From contig VGZJ01000002.1 in assembly GCA_016872595.1 (NCBI GenBank), positions 1 through 64,000 of the forward strand: a stretch of DNA of 64,000 nucleotides, in the 5' to 3' direction. Origin of the DNA: Planctomycetota bacterium (GTDB taxonomy: Bacteria; Planctomycetota; Planctomycetia; Gemmatales; Gemmataceae). This document shows positions 40,997 through 51,232 of this stretch, piece after piece (the stretch's first letter is position 1; each line of letters starts with the position of its first letter). The translations under genes were made by a program, and so were the position numbers. The notes under the pieces are model-generated. The model was given only the letters and a program-made list of their open reading frames with translations. It had not been told where the DNA came from and ran no database searches.

Positions 40997-42400
40997 ATGC
41001 AAACCGCGGCACTCGATTGGCTCACCAAGCACCACGAAGACATCGTTCACGGCTTGGCCGAGCTGGTCGCGATTCAGAGCATCAGCACCGACGGCGAACA
41101 CAACCCGGAGATCGAGCGCACCGCCAAGCTCACCTGCGACCAGATGCGGCAGGCCGGGCTGCACAACGTCGACGTCCTGCGCGTCGGCCAGTCGCTCCCC
41201 TACGCCTACGGCGAGTGGCTCGAAGCGCCCGGTAAGCCGACGGTGTTCCTATACGCGCACCACGACGTGCAGCCGGTGAACTTCGTCGAGCAGTGGCTCA
41301 GCGACCCGTGGAAGCTGACCCGGCGCGACGGGCGCTTGTACGCCCGCGGTTCGGCCGACGACAAGGCCGCGATCTCGGCGTTCCTCGGCGCGATTGCCGC
41401 GTACCGCAAGACCGGCAACGCCCTGCCGTGCAACATCAAGATGCTGGTCGAGGGTGAGGAAGAGGTCGGCTCCAAGAACCTGCTGAAGTTCTTCGAGACC
41501 CACCGCGACCGGCTCAAGTCCGACGTGATCGTTGTGTGCGACACGGAGAACATCGAGGTCGGGATTCCGAGCATCACCTACTCGCTCCGCGGCATCGTCG
41601 CGGTGAAGGTGGACGTGAGCACCGCGAAGGTGCCCTGCCACAGCGGGATGGGCGGCGGCGCGCTCCCGGACGCGGCCATCGCCCTGAACGCGATCCTCGG
41701 CCGCCTCTACTGGGACAACGGCCCGCTGCCGATCCCCGGGTTCTACGAGCAGGTGCGCCCGCTCACGGAAAAGGAAAAGGTCGCGTTCAACAAGCTCCCG
41801 TTCGAGGGGGAGAAGTTCCGCCAGATGCTCGGTATCGTACCGACCGCGCGGTTCGCGACCGAAACCGGCTACAACGCCTACGGGCAGACGTGGCGCAGGC
41901 CCGCGGTCACGGTGATCGCGCAGGAGGCGAGTTCCATCAAGGGCGCGTCGAACCAAGTGCTGCCGAAGGCGTCGGCAATCGTGAGCTGCCGCATCGTGCC
42001 CGATCAGAAGCCGGAGCACGTCCTTGAGAAGCTGACGGCGTTCCTCGCCGCCAACCCGCCGTGGGGCTGCGAGGTGAGCGTGTCGCCCGCCGGCCCGCCG
42101 GTCGATTGGTGGATGACGGACCCCAACGGCCCGGCGTTCGAGGCCGCGCTGGGCGCGATGCGCGACGGGTTCGAGCACGACCCGGTCGCCATCGGCTGCG
42201 GCGGCACCATCGGGTTCGTTGGCCCGCTCTCCGAACTGTTCGGCGGCGCGCCGGCGCTGCTCATGGGCATCGAAGACCCGGCGAGCAACGCCCACGCCCC
42301 CAACGAGAGCCTGCACGAGGGCGACTTCAAGAAACTGATGTCGTCGCTGGTCCGCCTCTTCGATAACCTCGGTAAACTCACCCCGGACCGCGTGAAGTAG
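40997..42400 (+). CDS. M20-family dipeptidase
   Basis: The 467-residue protein is an M20A/M20F di-zinc peptidase. Metal ligands are recognisable: His-Asp in VFLYAHHDVQPVNF, Asp in LYARGSADDKAAISAFLGAI, the Glu pair in MLVEGEEEVGSKNL, Asp in VIVVCDTENIEVG, and the last His in DPASNAHAPNESLH. A lid (dimerisation) domain lies at about 190-355. It hydrolyses dipeptides, probably in the cytosol because no signal peptide is seen. ATG at 40997 matches the family N-terminus (LDWLTKHHEDIVHGLAELV). A dispersed repeat follows its stop. Confidence 0.92.
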   Translation: MQTAALDWLTKHHEDIVHGLAELVAIQSISTDGEHNPEIERTAKLTCDQMRQAGLHNVDVLRVGQSLPYAYGEWLEAPGKPTVFLYAHHDVQPVNFVEQWLSDPWKLTRRDGRLYARGSADDKAAISAFLGAIAAYRKTGNALPCNIKMLVEGEEEVGSKNLLKFFETHRDRLKSDVIVVCDTENIEVGIPSITYSLRGIVAVKVDVSTAKVPCHSGMGGGALPDAAIALNAILGRLYWDNGPLPIPGFYEQVRPLTEKEKVAFNKLPFEGEKFRQMLGIVPTARFATETGYNAYGQTWRRPAVTVIAQEASSIKGASNQVLPKASAIVSCRIVPDQKPEHVLEKLTAFLAANPPWGCEVSVSPAGPPVDWWMTDPNGPAFEAALGAMRDGFEHDPVAIGCGGTIGFVGPLSELFGGAPALLMGIEDPASNAHAPNESLHEGDFKKLMSSLVRLFDNLGKLTPDRVK

Positions 42401-42607: not shown

Positions 42608-45298
42608 ATGTCGCACGCTCTCGCACGCACGACCCTCGCGGCCCTCGTACTCGTTAGCAGCGCCACACTCGCGCCGGCGCAGCCGGTGACGCCGAAGGAG
42701 CCGAAGCGCGCCGACAAGATGGACGTGCAGATCCGGTACCGCATCCGGGCCGACCGCGACGAGCGCATCCGCCAGTATCGCGTACTCGAAAAGCACCTCG
42801 CCGGTCTCGGCTTCGTGGACGCGCTCAAGGACGACCCGATCCACGAACTCGACATCCTCGACCCGACCGCGGAGCGGTTCGTCGGCACCATTCCCGGCGA
42901 CAAGGTCGAAGCGATTCTGGACGACGTGCGGGTCCAGAACATCCTGTTCGCGCCGACCGGGTTCGCGTACCCGGACGCCCCGGACAAGCCCGTTGCGATC
43001 AAGCTCGGCCTGCGCAGCGGGTTGCTCGGCCCGGTCCAACAGCAACTCCATCGCCAAGTGGTCGCGCACCTCGCCCAGCTCGGCTTCGTCGAGGCGCTCG
43101 GATACGAGACGCGCGGCTACACGCTCGTTCGCGGGTACATCCAGTACAAGAGCCTGAACCTGCTGGTGAAAGACCTACGCGCGGAACCGAGCGGCTGGTT
43201 CACGGTGAACACCAACATCGACAAGCTGCCCGTGCCGCTGCGCGAGCGCAACCCGGTGCGATGGGCCGAAGTACTGCCGATCACCGAGTTCCCCGCGCCG
43301 TACTCGCCGCCGCCCGTGTTGCCGGCGCAACTGCGCTACTCCGCGGACCTGCGGGCGCTCTTGCTCGCGCCGCCGGGTAAGGACGTGCCGATCCGCGCCG
43401 AGGTCGTGTTCGAGAACCGCATCGACGACGTGGAAGCGCTACGCACGCTCGTATCCGGGCGCTACGTCGGCTCGTCGCTCGACGGCGTGATCGGCAACGT
43501 CGCCAGCATCCGCTTCGCGCGGCAGGCGCTACTGGAAGCGTTCGCGCTCGAACCCGGCGTGGCGCACCTGCGCTTGCCGCGCGAGGGGGCGGAGACGGTC
43601 GGCCTCGCGCAAGGCGGGAAAGGTACCGCGCCCGCGGACGCACTCGCCGCCGCGAACCTCGACAAGCTCCGCGCGCTCGGCTACACCGGCACCGGGGTGA
43701 AAGTGATCCTCATCGCCTCCGACTTCACCGGCGCGGACAAGCTCGTCGGCACGGCGCTCCCGAAGCGCACCAAGATCGTGGACCTGACGACGGAACTGAC
43801 GCCCGAACTGGTCCCGGCGAAGGCCGACTTCGCGCGCCTCGGCACCGGCACGGCCGCCGCGAAGGCACTCGCCGCGGTCGCCCCGGACGCAGAACTGGTG
43901 CTCGTCCGCATCGACCCCGGGTGCTTCTTCCACCTGCACACGATCATCAAGCTCGCGCGCGGCGAGATCCAGTACACCGACGCGATGCGCGCGCGGCTTA
44001 ACGAGTTGGCCCTGCGCTCCGCGATCATCGACCGCGAGAAGCTCGTCGCCATCGACGCCTACAAGAAGGCGTTCGCGGACCTGAGCGACGCGCCCGAAGC
44101 GGTGAAGCTGCGCCTGAAAACAAAGGCCGACCTCGAAGCGGTGATCAAGAGGGAACAAGACCTGACGCAGTACCTCAACCGCTTCAACGCCTATCAGAAG
44201 GAGCTGAGTACGGCCCTGACCGGGGCGCAGGTGTTCGTGAACACGCTGGCGTGGGAGTCGGGGTACCCGCTCGACGCGCTGAGCGAGTTCGCGCAGATCA
44301 TCGACCTGCGCGCGAACGTGCTGCCGCCGCGCGTGAACAAGCGCCCCGGCGACGCGGACGCGGCCCCGAAGCCGCCGCTGGTCTGGGTACAGGCCGCCAG
44401 CGCCGGCGGTGCGGCCGTGTGGGGCGGCCCGTTCCTCGACGCCAACCGCGACGGCCTCATGGAGTTCATTCCGCCGGGCGCGAAGCTCCCCGCGGACAAC
44501 TGGTCGCCGCAACTCAGCTTCCTCGGCACCCGCGTCGCGACCGGCGCGGTCGCGCCCGAACTGGCGAAGGACGCGAAGCTGCGCATCGTGGTGCAGTGGC
44601 GCGAGCCAGCCGACCCGAACTTCCCCGAAACCGACATCCCGGTTCACGCTCTGACCGTGCGCCTGATGAAGCAACTGGACCCGACCGGCGACAAGCGCGC
44701 CAGCGACGAGATGGTCGAACTGGCGCGCAGCGGCAGCTCGCCGAACGTGGTGTTCCGCACGCGGACGTACCTCGTGTTCGAGCAGATGTTGGAGTTCACG
44801 GTGCCCGAAGCCGGGCGGTACGCGCTGGCGCTGGAAGCGCCCGCGCGCCCGGACCCGCTCATCCCCGCTCTGCGCCGCGACGTGGAAGTTTATCCGCGCA
44901 TCGTAATCGAAACCGTGGGCACGCCGCTGAACGACGCGAAGGTGGTGTTCCGCTCGTACACGACGACGAGCGCCGGGGTGGGGCTGCCCGGCGACGCCAA
45001 GTTCGCGCTCACGGTCGGCGTCGAGGCCGAGGGCGCGCAGGTGGGCGGCGGCACCGGCCTGACGCTGCGCACGAAGCCCGACGTGTACGGCCCGGCGGCG
45101 CTGACGTTCGGGAACGATACGTTCACCGGGCCGGGTACCGCGACCGCGTTCGCGGGCGGGGCCGCGGCGCTGCTGACACAGGCCCGCGCCGGCGCGCCGA
45201 ACCTGTTCGACTCCGCGCGCATCGAATCGGGCAAGAAGCTGGTGCTGCCCGAAGCGTGGCTGAAGATCGTCCCGCCCGCCGACAAGCTGAAACCGTAG
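42608..45298 (+). CDS. Secreted subtilase-like protein lacking the catalytic triad
   Basis: The 896-residue product starts with a signal peptide (RTTLAALVLVSSATLAPAQ). The core (about 360-850) follows the subtilisin layout. LGYTGTGVKVILIASDFTG stands where the catalytic Asp motif is expected. GTGTAAAKALAAVAPDAELV is at the place of HGTHVAG, without His. VQAASAGGAAVWGGPFLDAN is at the oxyanion region, and GPGTATAFAGGAAALL is where GTSMATP should supply Ser. All three catalytic residues appear replaced. The first 350 residues and the inserted helical segment near 470-560 are unassigned. It is probably a binding protein built on a dead protease fold. Confidence 0.75.
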   Translation: MSHALARTTLAALVLVSSATLAPAQPVTPKEPKRADKMDVQIRYRIRADRDERIRQYRVLEKHLAGLGFVDALKDDPIHELDILDPTAERFVGTIPGDKVEAILDDVRVQNILFAPTGFAYPDAPDKPVAIKLGLRSGLLGPVQQQLHRQVVAHLAQLGFVEALGYETRGYTLVRGYIQYKSLNLLVKDLRAEPSGWFTVNTNIDKLPVPLRERNPVRWAEVLPITEFPAPYSPPPVLPAQLRYSADLRALLLAPPGKDVPIRAEVVFENRIDDVEALRTLVSGRYVGSSLDGVIGNVASIRFARQALLEAFALEPGVAHLRLPREGAETVGLAQGGKGTAPADALAAANLDKLRALGYTGTGVKVILIASDFTGADKLVGTALPKRTKIVDLTTELTPELVPAKADFARLGTGTAAAKALAAVAPDAELVLVRIDPGCFFHLHTIIKLARGEIQYTDAMRARLNELALRSAIIDREKLVAIDAYKKAFADLSDAPEAVKLRLKTKADLEAVIKREQDLTQYLNRFNAYQKELSTALTGAQVFVNTLAWESGYPLDALSEFAQIIDLRANVLPPRVNKRPGDADAAPKPPLVWVQAASAGGAAVWGGPFLDANRDGLMEFIPPGAKLPADNWSPQLSFLGTRVATGAVAPELAKDAKLRIVVQWREPADPNFPETDIPVHALTVRLMKQLDPTGDKRASDEMVELARSGSSPNVVFRTRTYLVFEQMLEFTVPEAGRYALALEAPARPDPLIPALRRDVEVYPRIVIETVGTPLNDAKVVFRSYTTTSAGVGLPGDAKFALTVGVEAEGAQVGGGTGLTLRTKPDVYGPAALTFGNDTFTGPGTATAFAGGAAALLTQARAGAPNLFDSARIESGKKLVLPEAWLKIVPPADKLKP

Positions 45299-45454
45299 CG
45301 CGCAAAAGTTCACTCCGCCCCTTGACGTGACATGCCATCCCGTATACTATAAACTGGTGTCACGTTGCAGGTGCGCCGCGCGAATCTCGCGCGGCGCTGA
45401 GGGGCCGTCGTGCTTCGCGCCGAACAACCCTGCCATCGATCCGCGAACGAGCGC

Positions 45455-45777
45455 GTTGTGCAACCGCGCGCGGCTTCGCCACTTCGGTACGCGCGGCAGT
45501 CGGGCCACATTCTAATAAGCGCCAGTTGTACCAGAGTTTCTCGTTTTGCAACTTCGGCGGCGCGCCGGTGTTGTGCAACCGTTTTTGAAACGGCCACGTT
45601 GGGGAGTGCGGGCGTTGTGCAACCGATTTTGAAATTGCCCCAGTAGGTGCCGCGAGCCGAGCGGCACCGCGATGGCATGGGTGAAGCAATCGACGCGCGC
45701 CAATAACTGTCCCCGTTCAGAAGCGGTGCCGCTCGGCTCGCGGCACCTACCAAGAGGAGCGCGCGTGTTGTGCAACC
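45455..45777. repeat. GTTGTGCAACC interspersed direct repeats
   Basis: The core GTTGTGCAACC starts at 45455, 45570, 45614 and 45767. The last two share GTTGTGCAACCGATTTTGA followed by GCCCCA 5 nt later; a decayed copy is near 45525-45555. Spacing (115, 44 and 153 bp) is irregular, so this is not a CRISPR array. Confidence 0.75.
45643..45750. repeat. 28-bp perfect inverted repeat
   Basis: Arms 45643-45670 and 45723-45750 are exact complements containing GGTGCCGCGAGCCGAGCGGC, with a 52-nt spacer. The left arm lies inside the GTTGTGCAACC repeat field. A mobile or REP-like origin is likely. Confidence 0.8.
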
Positions 45778-45817
45778 GATTTTGATTTCGCCCCACTTCG
45801 GGGCGCACCACCGTAGG

Positions 45818-46506: not shown

Positions 46507-47827
46507 TCACCCCATGCGGGTCATCTTCACTTCGCCGCCGACGATGGTTGCCAGCGCGCGGCCCACGACCGGCGTGCCGTGGAACGGCGTGTTGCGGCTC
46601 TTCGACTTCGTTTCGTCCTTGCTGATCGTCCACTTGGCCTTTGGGTCGATCACGGTCACGTCCGCGGGGCGGCCCACTTGGAGCGTGCCGCGGTCGATGC
46701 CGAGCACGGCGGCCGGGTTGCACGTCATCTTTGCCAGCATCCGCGGCCACGTCAAATGGCCCGGCTCGATCAGGTGCGTCACGCACAGCGGCAGGAACGT
46801 TTCGAGGCCGAGGATGCCGTTCGGGGCTTGGTCGAACTCGCGCTCCTTCTTCTCCGGGGCGTGCGGGGCGTGGTCGGTCGCCAGTACGGTTAGTGTGTCG
46901 TCCTTCAGCCCTTCGAGGATCGCGAGCCGGTCGGCCTCGGTGCGCAGCGGGGGCGACATCTTGTAGTTGCTGTCGAACCGGCGCATCTCCTCGTCGGTGA
47001 GGATGAAGTGGTGCGGACACGCCTCGCCGCTGATCCAGAACGACGGCTTCCCCGACAGTTTCAGAACCTCCGCGCGCTTGCGGCCTTGGCGGATCAGATC
47101 GACGCCGCCCGCGGTGGAGACGTGCAGGATGTGGACCTTGCCGCCGGTCAGCTCCGCGAGGACGATGTCGCGATAGATCATGATGTCTTCGGCCACGCCC
47201 GGCATCCCGCGCAGGCCCAGCTGCGTGCTGACGAACCCCTCGTTCATCACGCCGCCCTGCGTGAGTTCGAGGATTTCGGCGTGTACGAGCACCGCCTTGT
47301 CGAACATCCTGCAGTACTCGAGCGCCCGCCGCATGATCTCCGCGGAGTACACCGGCGCGCCGTCGTCGGTGAACGCGACCGCCCCGCCCTCGACCAGCCC
47401 GCCGAGTTCGGCCAGTTCCTTGCCGTCGCGGTTCTTCGAGACCGCGCCGATGGGGAACACGTTGCAGAACCCCGCGCGCTCGGCCTGATGAATGACGAAC
47501 TCGACGGCCATGCGCGTATCAAGCGCCGGCTCGGTGTTGGGCATACACGCGACCGACGTGACCCCCCGCGACCGCGCACGCGGTGCCGGTTGCAATGGTC
47601 TCGTCCTCCTCGCGGCCCGGCTCGCGCAGGTGAACGTGCATGTCGATGAGGCCCGGCGACACGATGAGGCCGGTGCAGTCGAGTTCCTTCACGTCGCCGT
47701 TCACCCACGCCGGGCGCGCGCCGGTGCCCGCCACCTTGCCCTCGGCGAGCCACAGGTCGGTGACGGTATCGAAGTCGCGCGACGGGTCGATCACGCGGCC
47801 GTTGTGGAGCAGAATCGGGAGCGCCAT
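46507..47827 (-). pseudogene. pyrC: Dihydroorotase, interrupted by a +1/-1 frameshift
   Basis: Two adjacent frames together make one dihydroorotase (~440 residues). The N-terminal part from the ATG at 47827 reads MALPILLHNGRVIDPSRDFD and SPGLIDMHVHLREPGREEDE (metal HxH), up to TACAVAGG. The C-terminal part in another frame resumes at GVTSVACMPNTEPALDTRMA and includes LHVSTAGGVDLI, GEACPHHFILTDEEM and TVLATDHAPHAPEKKERE. The break lies at a run of six C at 47552-47557 (plus strand); one more C restores the frame. This could be a sequencing error or a real mutation. The enzyme cyclises carbamoyl-aspartate in pyrimidine synthesis, next to pyrB. Confidence 0.88.
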
Positions 47828-47855
47828 GAGTGCCGGGGGGAAGGAGTAAGAGTTT

Positions 47856-47960
47856 GATCCACAGATTACGCAGAGAGACACAGATTGAAAGGCAGAAGAG
47901 TAAGTCGTCGCGCGGTGTTCGCCGTCTTCAAGCTGTGTCCCTCTGCGTAACCTGTGGATC
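47856..47960. repeat. 28-bp inverted repeat upstream of pyrC
   Basis: Arms 47856-47883 and 47933-47960 pair with two mismatches (GATCCACAGATTACGCAGAG and its near-complement). It lies directly upstream of the pyrC start, between pyrC and a Thr/Pro-rich exported protein gene. The remaining spacer (47828-48040) shows nothing else. Confidence 0.75.
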
Positions 47961-48040
47961 GAATTCTTTACGGGTGGGCGCGAAGAAACGCCGGGTGCCG
48001 CACCGTTGCGGCACCCGGCGTCGAGTGTGTGCGAGCAACC

Positions 48041-48550
48041 TTAGCGGGCGCGCAGGCGGCTGAGGAAGCTGCCGCGGGTGCCCGTGGTCGTCGTGCCAGT
48101 GCCGATGCGCGAGCCACTGGTCGTGGTGCCACCGACTTGCACGATGGTGCCGTCGGTGGTGGTGTAGCGGCCGGCGGGCAGGGTGCCGGTGGCCGGGACG
48201 ACCTTGCCGCTGGTGGTGGTGCCGGCGGCCGGCTTCACCGGGGGCATCGGGGTCGGCGTGGTGCCGGGCATCGGCATCGGTGTGGCGACCGGGGGTGTCA
48301 CGACCGGGGCCGGGGTGTACGACGAGGTGGCGCGGCGACCGAACACCCCGTTACCGCTGCGGAGCCGGCTGAACAGCCCGCGGCGCGGGGCATCCGTGGT
48401 GCTGTAGTCTACGATCGGAGTGCCGGTGGCCGGGGTCGCTGCGGGCGTCGCCGGGGTCGCCGGCTTTGTGCCCGTGGTCGGCTTTTCGTCGGCGCTCACA
48501 ACCGACGCGCTCAGAACCGCGACCGCAACCGCCATCAGGAACCGCTTCAT
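48041..48550 (-). CDS. Exported Thr/Pro/Gly-rich low-complexity protein
   Basis: The 169-residue product from the ATG at 48550 (GGAGGA 7 nt upstream) has a signal peptide (MKRFLMAVAVAVLSASVVSA). The mature chain is low complexity: PATPATPAATPATGTPIV, a basic patch RRGLFSRLRSGNGVFGRRAT, PMPMPGTTPTPMPPVKP and GTTTTGTRGSFLSRLRAR. No known domain is seen. The repeated FSRLRSGNG / FLSRLRAR blocks are similar, so there may be a short duplicated motif. It is probably a secreted or cell-envelope protein, perhaps glycosylated on Thr. The role is unknown. Confidence 0.7.
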   Translation of the reverse strand: MKRFLMAVAVAVLSASVVSADEKPTTGTKPATPATPAATPATGTPIVDYSTTDAPRRGLFSRLRSGNGVFGRRATSSYTPAPVVTPPVATPMPMPGTTPTPMPPVKPAAGTTTSGKVVPATGTLPAGRYTTTDGTIVQVGGTTTSGSRIGTGTTTTGTRGSFLSRLRAR

Positions 48551-48681
48551 GATGCTTCCTCCTGAAACCCTCTGATTCCCGCACCGTCCGTCGGTCGGGC
48601 GATCAGGTGTGTCTAGTCTAGCGGCCCGAACCGGACACGGGAATAGTCCGGTTGTAAGGATTGTAAGGATTATTCGTGCGA

Positions 48682-49596
48682 TTAAGCAGCCTTGTTCAGT
48701 TCGCTCAGCACGGCCATTCGGACCGCGAGGCCAATAGTCACTTGATCGAGGATCGCGGAGTTCGGGCCGTCCGCCACGTCGGGCGAAATCTCCACCCCGC
48801 GGTTGATCGGGCCCGGCGCGAGCAGCAGAACATTCGGCTTCGCCTTCTTCATCCGGTCGCCGTCCACCCCGAACAGCAGCCGGTATTCGCGGATGGAGGG
48901 GAAAAGCCCGCTGCGCTGGCGCTCGAATTGGACGCGCAGCAGGTTCAGCACGTCGCACCGCGGCAGCACGTCGTCGAGCTTGTCCGCGATCTCGACGCCC
49001 ATCTCCGCCACATACGACGGTACGAGCGTGGTGGGGCCGCAGACGATCACCTTCGCGCCTAGCGTCGTGAGCGCGTGAATGTTGCTGCGCGCGACGCGGC
49101 TGTGCGCGATGTCGCCGATCAGCCCGACCGTCAGCCCGTCGAGCTTCTTCAGCTTCTTGCGAATGGTCAGGATGTCGAGCAGCGCTTGCGTGGGGTGTTC
49201 GTGCGCGCCGTCGCCGGCGTTCACGACGCGAACGTGCGGTTTCAGGTGCTTGGCGAGCATGTGCGGCGCGCCCGGTGACGAGTGCCGGACCACCACCATA
49301 TCGATGCCCATCGCCTCGATGTTCTTGGCGGTGTCGATGAACGTCTCGCCCTTCGACGTGCTGGACCCGCTAGGTGAGAAGTCGAGTACGTCCGCACCGA
49401 GCCGCCGCGCCGCGAGACCGAAACTCATGCGCGTTCGCGTGGACGGCTCGTAGAAGAGGTTGACGACGACTTTGCCCTTGAGGTCGTCGCGCTTGGGCAC
49501 GTCGCCGAACCCGACGCCGGCGAACCCTTCGGCCGCGTCGAGCAGGCGCGTGAGCTGCGCCGCTGTGAGGCCTTCCAGTCCTAGCAAGTGCTTCAT
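48682..49596 (-). CDS. pyrB: Aspartate carbamoyltransferase catalytic chain
   Basis: The 304-residue protein has the ATCase motifs: carbamoyl-phosphate loop [40 protein letters not shown] (Ser/Lys loop), [40 protein letters not shown] and [13 protein letters not shown] (the PLP-type loop). It makes carbamoyl-aspartate, the substrate of the dihydroorotase encoded ~0.9 kb downstream on the same strand. The gene between them is a short exported protein of unrelated type. No regulatory chain (pyrI) is nearby, as usual in bacteria outside the enterics. Confidence 0.95.
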
Positions 49597-49678: not shown

Positions 49679-51232
49679 TTACTTCCTTTTCAACCCGCGG
49701 CCCGGTCGCGCGCTCGTGCGCTCGCCGCGGAGCAACACGGGCACACCGTTCACGAATACGCTATCGACACCGACCGCCAGTGCTTTCCCGTCGTCGTAGG
49801 TCGAACGGTCGGCGATGGTCGCGGGGTCGAAGATGACGACGTCAGCAGCCAGCCCTTCGCGGATCAGCCCTCGGTCCTTCAAGCTGTAGCGCCGGGCGAC
49901 GTGGTACGTACACTTCATCACGGCTTCTTCGAGTGGCCAGTCGCCGTTGCGGACGTGGTGGCCGATGTAGCGCGCGTAGCAGCCGGTGCCGCGCGGGTGC
50001 GGCTTGCCCCCAACGTAAATGCCGTCGCTGCCGCCCATCATTAGGAGATGGCGCATCAACTTCGGGATGTCCGACTCTTGGCGCTCCGCGAAGTGCCGCA
50101 CGACGCACCCCGCCGCGAGGTTCGTCGCCACGAGCAGATCGCAGGTGAAGTCGAGCATCGACTGGTTGCAGGCGTTGGCCGCGTCTGGCAGCGTCATGCC
50201 TTCGAGCTGGCGATACTTGTCGTGCGGCACGCTGGCGAGACGCAGCGTGTGGATGGGGAACCGCGGGTTGGCGAACGCCGGTTCCAGCTTCTTGCGGGTC
50301 GCGGGCAGCTTCAGGCGCTCGACGGTCGCCTCCACGCCGCCTTCGAGGAACTCCGGCGGGAGCGTAATCATCGCGACGATGGTGCTGCCGTACAGGTAGC
50401 AATACAGGTCGAAAGTCACGTCCACGCCGTCGGCGCGGGCCGCGTCGAGCAGCGGAATGGTCTGGTCGGCTAGGCAGTTGAAGTGCGACACATGGACGCC
50501 GCACCCGGCGCGCTTGCCGATGTTGAACACCTCTTGCAGCGCGGCCGGGGCCTTCTGGCCGTTGTAGCCGCGCATGTGCGTGACGTAGATGCCGCCGTAG
50601 GGGGCGATCTCTTCGCACAGGGCCGTTAGCTCGTCCTCGTCCGCGTACAGGCTTGGCACATAGTCGAGGCCGCTGGACAGGCCGACCGCGCCTTGCTCCA
50701 TGCCCTCGCGCACGAGCGCCTTCATCTTGGCGATCTCGCCGGGGTTGGGCCGGCGCGGGTCGAGGCCCATCACCTCCATGCGGACGTTGCCGTTGGGGAT
50801 CAGCGTGCAGGCGTTGATCGAGCACTGCCCGTCGAACTGCGAGAGGAACTTGGTGACGGTGCGCCAGTCGCGCCCCGGCAGCGGGAAGTTGCCGTTGAAC
50901 CCCGCCGTATAGCGCCGCATGTAAGCCATCGTGTCCGGCGACGCCGGCGCGAACGCCACCCCGTCTTGCCCGATCACGTGCGTCGTCACACCCTGCCGCA
51001 CGCCCTGTTCGTGAACCGGATCGGCTAGCAGCGCGAGGTCGCCGTGAACGTGCGCGTCAATGAACCCCGGGCACACGACGCGCCCCGCGGCGTCCACCGT
51101 CTGCTTCGCGCCGGCCTTGCCGAACCGCCCGACCGCAGTGATGCGGTCGCCGGTAATGCCGACATCGGCATGAAACCACGGCAGCCCGGAGCCGTCCACG
51201 ACGCGGCCGTTGCGGATGAGGGTATCGAACAT
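49679..51232 (-). CDS. D-aminoacylase-like amidohydrolase
   Basis: The 517-residue protein is an amidohydrolase of the N-acyl-D-amino-acid deacylase group. It has [20 protein letters not shown], the metal HxH in [61 protein letters not shown] (metal His), [20 protein letters not shown] (catalytic Asp), and [20 protein letters not shown] at the C-terminus. The enzyme removes acyl groups from N-acyl D-amino acids or related amides, perhaps cell-wall derived. It is cytoplasmic by sequence. The D-amino-acid specificity is inferred from the family only. Confidence 0.85.

What the first reader, a model, noticed from the sequence alone, without database searches (positions are those of the whole stretch)
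42608..45298. Subtilase fold with all three catalytic residues replaced
Subtilisin blocks are recognisable (GTGVKVILIA, TAAAKALAAVAPDAELV, AASAGG, GPGTATAFAGGAAALL), but Asp, His and Ser positions hold other residues. A large secreted pseudoprotease of 896 residues is unusual.
Basis: partly seen in the sequence, partly recalled or inferred. Interest (0 to 1): 0.55.

Follow-up and report, generated by a model that had tools for sequence, protein, structure and literature searches.

The report
Dead subtilisin conserved across Gemmataceae bacteria
A large exported protein shared by almost all bacteria of one planctomycete family descends from a protein-cutting enzyme whose cutting site was lost in several separate lineages while the rest of the protein stayed under strong selection, so it probably binds or regulates something instead of cutting.

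Summary
Protein 42608-45295 (+), 896 aa, is a subtilase (S8) relative whose Asp, His and Ser positions are Ala370, Thr413 and Gly843; the oxyanion Asn is Ala599. Alone it hits no Pfam, NCBIfam or meaningful PDB entry, but a profile of its relatives matches subtilisin BPN' in register, and profile-profile comparison with intact short subtilases gives 99.8% (E 1.4e-28). Relatives sit in 83 of 95 Gemmataceae genomes, usually single copy, and in a sister family; none were found elsewhere in the class. The losses are not universal: at least 9 relatives of the same build keep Asp/His/Ser. The tree needs at least 5 changes of triad state (7 if only losses), and one single-loss clade is rejected (AU p 3e-7). 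The gene is under purifying selection (dN/dS 0.05-0.38), so it is not decaying. In the sister family the whole Ser-bearing third is deleted while the N-terminal modules, an 88-residue helical hairpin and a beta insert remain. Best reading: an exported, uncleaved pseudoprotease acting as a binding scaffold or regulator, resembling clostridial CspC/CspA in layout. That role is inferred: neighbours are housekeeping genes and both AlphaFold2 models were poor (pLDDT 49).

The parts
42608..45298 (+). pseudo-subtilase gene, 896 aa plus stop
42608..42682 (+). signal-peptide-like N-terminus, residues 1-25
   Evidence: sequence; hydrophobic core plus small-x-small motif in 58 of 61 relatives
42713..42967 (+). 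N-terminal module 1, residues 36-120
   Evidence: homologous to module 2 by hhalign (96.3%, E 1.9e-9); strand-helix-strand-helix-strand prediction
42977..43252 (+). N-terminal module 2, residues 124-215
43370..43615 (+). module 3, residues 255-336, in the prodomain position
   Evidence: conserved in the family; no detectable homology to modules 1-2; prodomain role inferred from position
43634..43963 (+). front part of the subtilase domain, residues 343-452
43715..43717 (+). A370 at catalytic Asp position (D32)
43844..43846 (+). T413 at catalytic His position (H64)
43964..44227 (+). inserted helical hairpin, residues 453-540, absent from the short intact subtilases
   Evidence: length 88-89 in most relatives, 88-118 overall; helices 458-488 and 496-536, mostly pLDDT 66-86; unaligned
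44228..44422 (+). middle part of the subtilase domain, residues 541-605
44402..44404 (+). A599 at oxyanion Asn position (N155)
44423..44956 (+). beta-rich insert, residues 606-783, between the Asn and Ser motifs; holds the invariant Q663, E666 and E725
   Evidence: no PDB relative by profile
44957..45247 (+). back part of the subtilase domain, residues 784-880; deleted in the sister family
45134..45136 (+). G843 at catalytic Ser position (S221)
40997..42400 (+). upstream M20-type peptidase gene; same-strand neighbour in 10 of 25 loci compared
   Evidence: identity from sequence and family knowledge, no family search run

Best explanation
An exported subtilase-derived pseudoprotease. Shown: S8 ancestry, replacement of all catalytic residues, repeated loss in the family, purifying selection, conserved build. 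Inferred: it cannot cut peptide bonds or process its own N-terminal region, so the N-terminal modules stay attached over the degenerate cleft, and the protein works as a non-catalytic scaffold or regulator in the periplasm, with binding done by the N-terminal modules, the helical hairpin and the beta insert. The pseudoprotease part is about 93% likely. The scaffold/regulator role is about 55% likely, with partner unknown.
For: Register with BPN' and with intact subtilases at all four sites. In the 31-member clade holding the window protein no member keeps Asp or Ser; the His column is among the most variable (96th percentile entropy) and the Asn column is at the 74th, so the site is no longer constrained. 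dN/dS is 0.05-0.38 over 11 close pairs, mostly similar in N-terminal and subtilase parts. Present in 83 of 95 Gemmataceae. The sister family dropped residues 784-880 altogether yet kept the modules, hairpin (87-88 aa) and beta insert. Residues fixed in the dead clade but mostly different in other members lie at the old cleft (N545, T546, S598) and in the N-terminal modules (H148, F198). No new conserved nucleophile special to the dead clade was evident. CspC gives an experimental precedent: prodomain, subtilase and inserted jelly roll, His->Thr and Ser->Gly, no self-processing (PMC6636752).
Against: No biochemical data. Gene neighbours are housekeeping genes and give no partner. Structure models are low confidence, so attachment of the N-terminal modules over the cleft is not shown. 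N-terminal modules are not recognised as I9 prodomains by any profile. Some pseudoenzymes may have migrated catalytic residues (general caution, abstract of PMC10211241).
Confidence: 0.7

Rival explanations
1. A hydrolase whose catalytic residues migrated, or with another chemistry carried by the beta insert or modules.
For: Invariant polar residues such as D392, R434, Q663, E666 and E725.
Against: Those residues are equally conserved in relatives with an intact triad, so they predate the loss; no Ser, Cys or His nucleophile with an obvious catalytic setting arises specifically in the dead clade (S598 and H148 are the only new Ser/His, in the old oxyanion loop and in module 2). The only Cys is C439.
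Confidence: 0.06
2. A structural protein of the cell envelope; the subtilase body is only a stable brick.
For: Signal-peptide-like N-terminus, near-universal single copy, no operon partner; the Ser-bearing third can be lost.
Against: No surface anchor or repeat recognised; conserved remodelling of the old cleft (N545, T546, S598) suggests that the cleft still matters.
Confidence: 0.25
3. A decoy or inhibitor that binds an active protease through its prodomain-like modules.
For: N-terminal modules in the prodomain position, two of them repeats; some genomes also encode a short intact subtilase of the same superfamily (L074, L075).
Against: In the window's genome and most others no short intact relative was found with this query; modules not shown to be I9-like.
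Confidence: 0.12
4. A decaying pseudogene.
For: Loss of catalytic residues.
Against: Open frames across the family, dN/dS 0.05-0.38, conserved lengths.
Confidence: 0.01

Closest known systems
Clostridioides difficile CspC and CspA pseudoproteases (with active CspB)
   Same: N-terminal prodomain region, subtilase domain, beta-type insert between the Asn and Ser motifs; CspC has His->Thr (T170) and Ser->Gly (G485), the same two replacements as T413 and G843 (PMC6636752, PMC3567191, PMC12880746).
   Different: CspC keeps its Asp (D105); Csp proteins have no described 88-residue helical hairpin or repeated N-terminal modules; they serve spore germination, which Gemmata is not known to have (own knowledge). 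Homology of the two beta inserts was not shown.
Short Gemmataceae subtilases L073, L074, L075 (435-528 aa)
   Same: Homologous over the subtilase body with a shared insert position (hhalign 99.8%).
   Different: All four catalytic positions intact; no hairpin, no long N-terminal region.
Peptidase S8 (PF00082), subtilisin BPN'
   Same: Same domain ancestry; several intact family members score above the Pfam cut-off.
   Different: The window protein has no PF00082 hit and no catalytic residue.

Membership tests
Peptidase family S8 (active subtilase) | domain homology to subtilisin | tested here: met
Peptidase family S8 (active subtilase) | Asp-His-Ser triad | tested here: not met
   A370, T413, G843
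Peptidase family S8 (active subtilase) | oxyanion-hole Asn | tested here: not met
   A599
Peptidase family S8 (active subtilase) | proteolytic activity | not testable with these tools
   needs purified protein
Csp-type pseudoprotease | degenerate triad in a subtilase body | tested here: met
   PMC6636752
Csp-type pseudoprotease | jelly-roll insert between Asn and Ser | tested here: inconclusive
   A beta-rich insert is at that place, but its fold is unproven and the profile finds no PDB relative
Csp-type pseudoprotease | retained, uncleaved prodomain | not testable with these tools
   module 3 sits in the prodomain position; cleavage state needs protein data
Csp-type pseudoprotease | role in endospore germination, csp gene cluster | tested here: not met
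   neighbours are M20 peptidase, SDR, enolase, endonuclease IV and pyr genes; the role itself was not tested

The most novel reading that the evidence does not exclude
A core Gemmatales protein family in which a subtilase was converted, several times in parallel, from protease to ligand- or protein-binding scaffold, with the old active-site cleft and N-terminal modules co-remodelled into a new binding site.
Probability: 0.35. Interest if true: 0.7.

Novelty: new variant of a known kind. Interest (0 to 1): 0.52.

Why it matters
Pseudoproteases of the subtilase type are known in bacteria mainly from clostridial germination in the papers found here. This family holds intact members and several independently inactivated ones in one bacterial family with the same domain layout, so it offers a natural series for asking what a protease scaffold does once it stops cutting, and which part of the protein selection really holds on to.

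Tried and rejected
Pfam and NCBIfam scans of the protein alone: nothing. phmmer against PDB: only weak chance matches. AlphaFold2 with 5 rows, full length and subtilase part: pLDDT 49.3 and 48.9, too poor for overlay. Foldseek on the full-length model: no match at E <= 0.001; weak TNF and lipoxygenase beta-sandwich matches ignored. Viral contigs and plasmids: no relative. Profile of the N-terminal region against PDB: chance matches only, so an I9 identity is not claimed. AU test on the full tree did not finish; a 27-row subset with a simpler model did. Literature searches found no report of this family.

Full report
Observation. The gene at 42608-45298 (+) encodes 896 aa.

Relatives. A protein search found matches in 83 of 95 Gemmataceae genomes, nearly always one per genome. 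One of those matches (G032) is only a short subtilase; a profile of the N-terminal region independently finds the long family in 83 Gemmataceae and in 7 genomes of a second family of the order, and in no genome further away among 398 searched. No relative was found in viral contigs or plasmids.

Homology. The family profile (61 members, A1) hits subtilisin BPN' at E 4.4e-9 in two collinear stretches. The subtilase-part profile against three short intact Gemmataceae subtilases gives hhalign 99.8%, E 1.4e-28 over 339 columns, with the hairpin left unaligned. Most intact long members exceed the PF00082 cut-off.

Catalytic residues. All alignments agree: D32 -> A370, H64 -> T413, N155 -> A599, S221 -> G843. 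Across the family the state varies. Seven of the 61 keep Asp, His and Ser, and two more genomes (L137, L138) do as well; L045, L049, L077, L078, L137 and L138 keep all four positions. The 31-member clade with the window protein has no Asp and no Ser; a lone His (L019) and lone Asn residues (L006, L016, L025) occur, probably by chance.

History. On a tree built without the motif columns and rooted on the short subtilases, triad state changes at least 5 times; if only losses are allowed, 7. A tree with all triad-lost members in one clade is 311 log units worse, p-AU 3e-7, on a 27-row subset with a simple model. Some deep branches have modest support and the outgroup is distant, so the exact count is soft; polyphyly of the loss is firm under that model.

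Selection. dN/dS is 0.05-0.38 in 11 close pairs (several synonymous distances are near saturation, so values are rough). In the dead clade the former His column is more variable than 96% of columns and the Asn column than 74%, while the Asp and Ser columns settle mostly on Ala/Gly. Three positions at the old cleft (N545, T546, S598) and two in the N-terminal modules (H148, F198) are near-fixed in the dead clade and mostly different in other members.

Build. Signal-like N-terminus; modules 1 and 2 are repeats; module 3 in the prodomain position; subtilase front; an 88-aa helical hairpin; subtilase middle; a 178-aa beta-rich insert; subtilase back. Hairpin length is 88-89 in most members including distant ones, 88-118 overall. 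In the sister family the protein ends right after the beta insert in six genomes, so the whole Ser-bearing third is gone (the seventh, L135, is cut by its contig end).

Neighbours. An M20-type peptidase lies upstream on the same strand in 10 of 25 loci, an SDR gene in 7; downstream genes in others are enolase and endonuclease IV (identities from sequence and family knowledge). None points to a partner.

Mechanism. The evidence fits a non-catalytic exported scaffold or regulator. The closest described analogue is CspC/CspA, which share the layout of N-terminal prodomain, subtilase and inserted beta domain; CspC also has His->Thr and Ser->Gly and does not self-process (PMC6636752; CspB structure PMC3567191; CspC:CspA heterodimer PMC12880746). 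This is likeness of design, not membership: the beta inserts were not shown homologous, the hairpin and module repeats are additional, and no germination context is seen.

Limits. Both AlphaFold2 models are poor, so fold and cleft statements rest on sequence. Signal peptide and export are by heuristic. The function is not demonstrated.

Noticed in passing
45445-45785: Short repeat GTTGTGCAACCG(A/T)TTTTGA, three exact long copies and a fourth core copy downstream of the gene; 20 copies across the 6.8 Mb genome, none for the reversed control pattern: an interspersed repeat family.
   Followed up: partly
46507-49596 (-): Dihydroorotase-like and aspartate carbamoyltransferase-like genes (pyrC, pyrB) lie close together downstream, followed by a D-aminoacylase-like gene 49679-51232 (identities from sequence, not searched).
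   Followed up: no
L129-L134 (second family of the order): Sister-family members end just after the beta insert, losing the whole Ser-bearing third of the subtilase domain.
   Followed up: yes
L041, L052, L058 at the N155 column: Many triad-keeping or partly degenerate members have Asp instead of the oxyanion Asn.
   Followed up: no
L073, L074, L075: Short intact subtilases with a beta insert between the Asn and Ser motifs in some Gemmataceae.
   Followed up: partly
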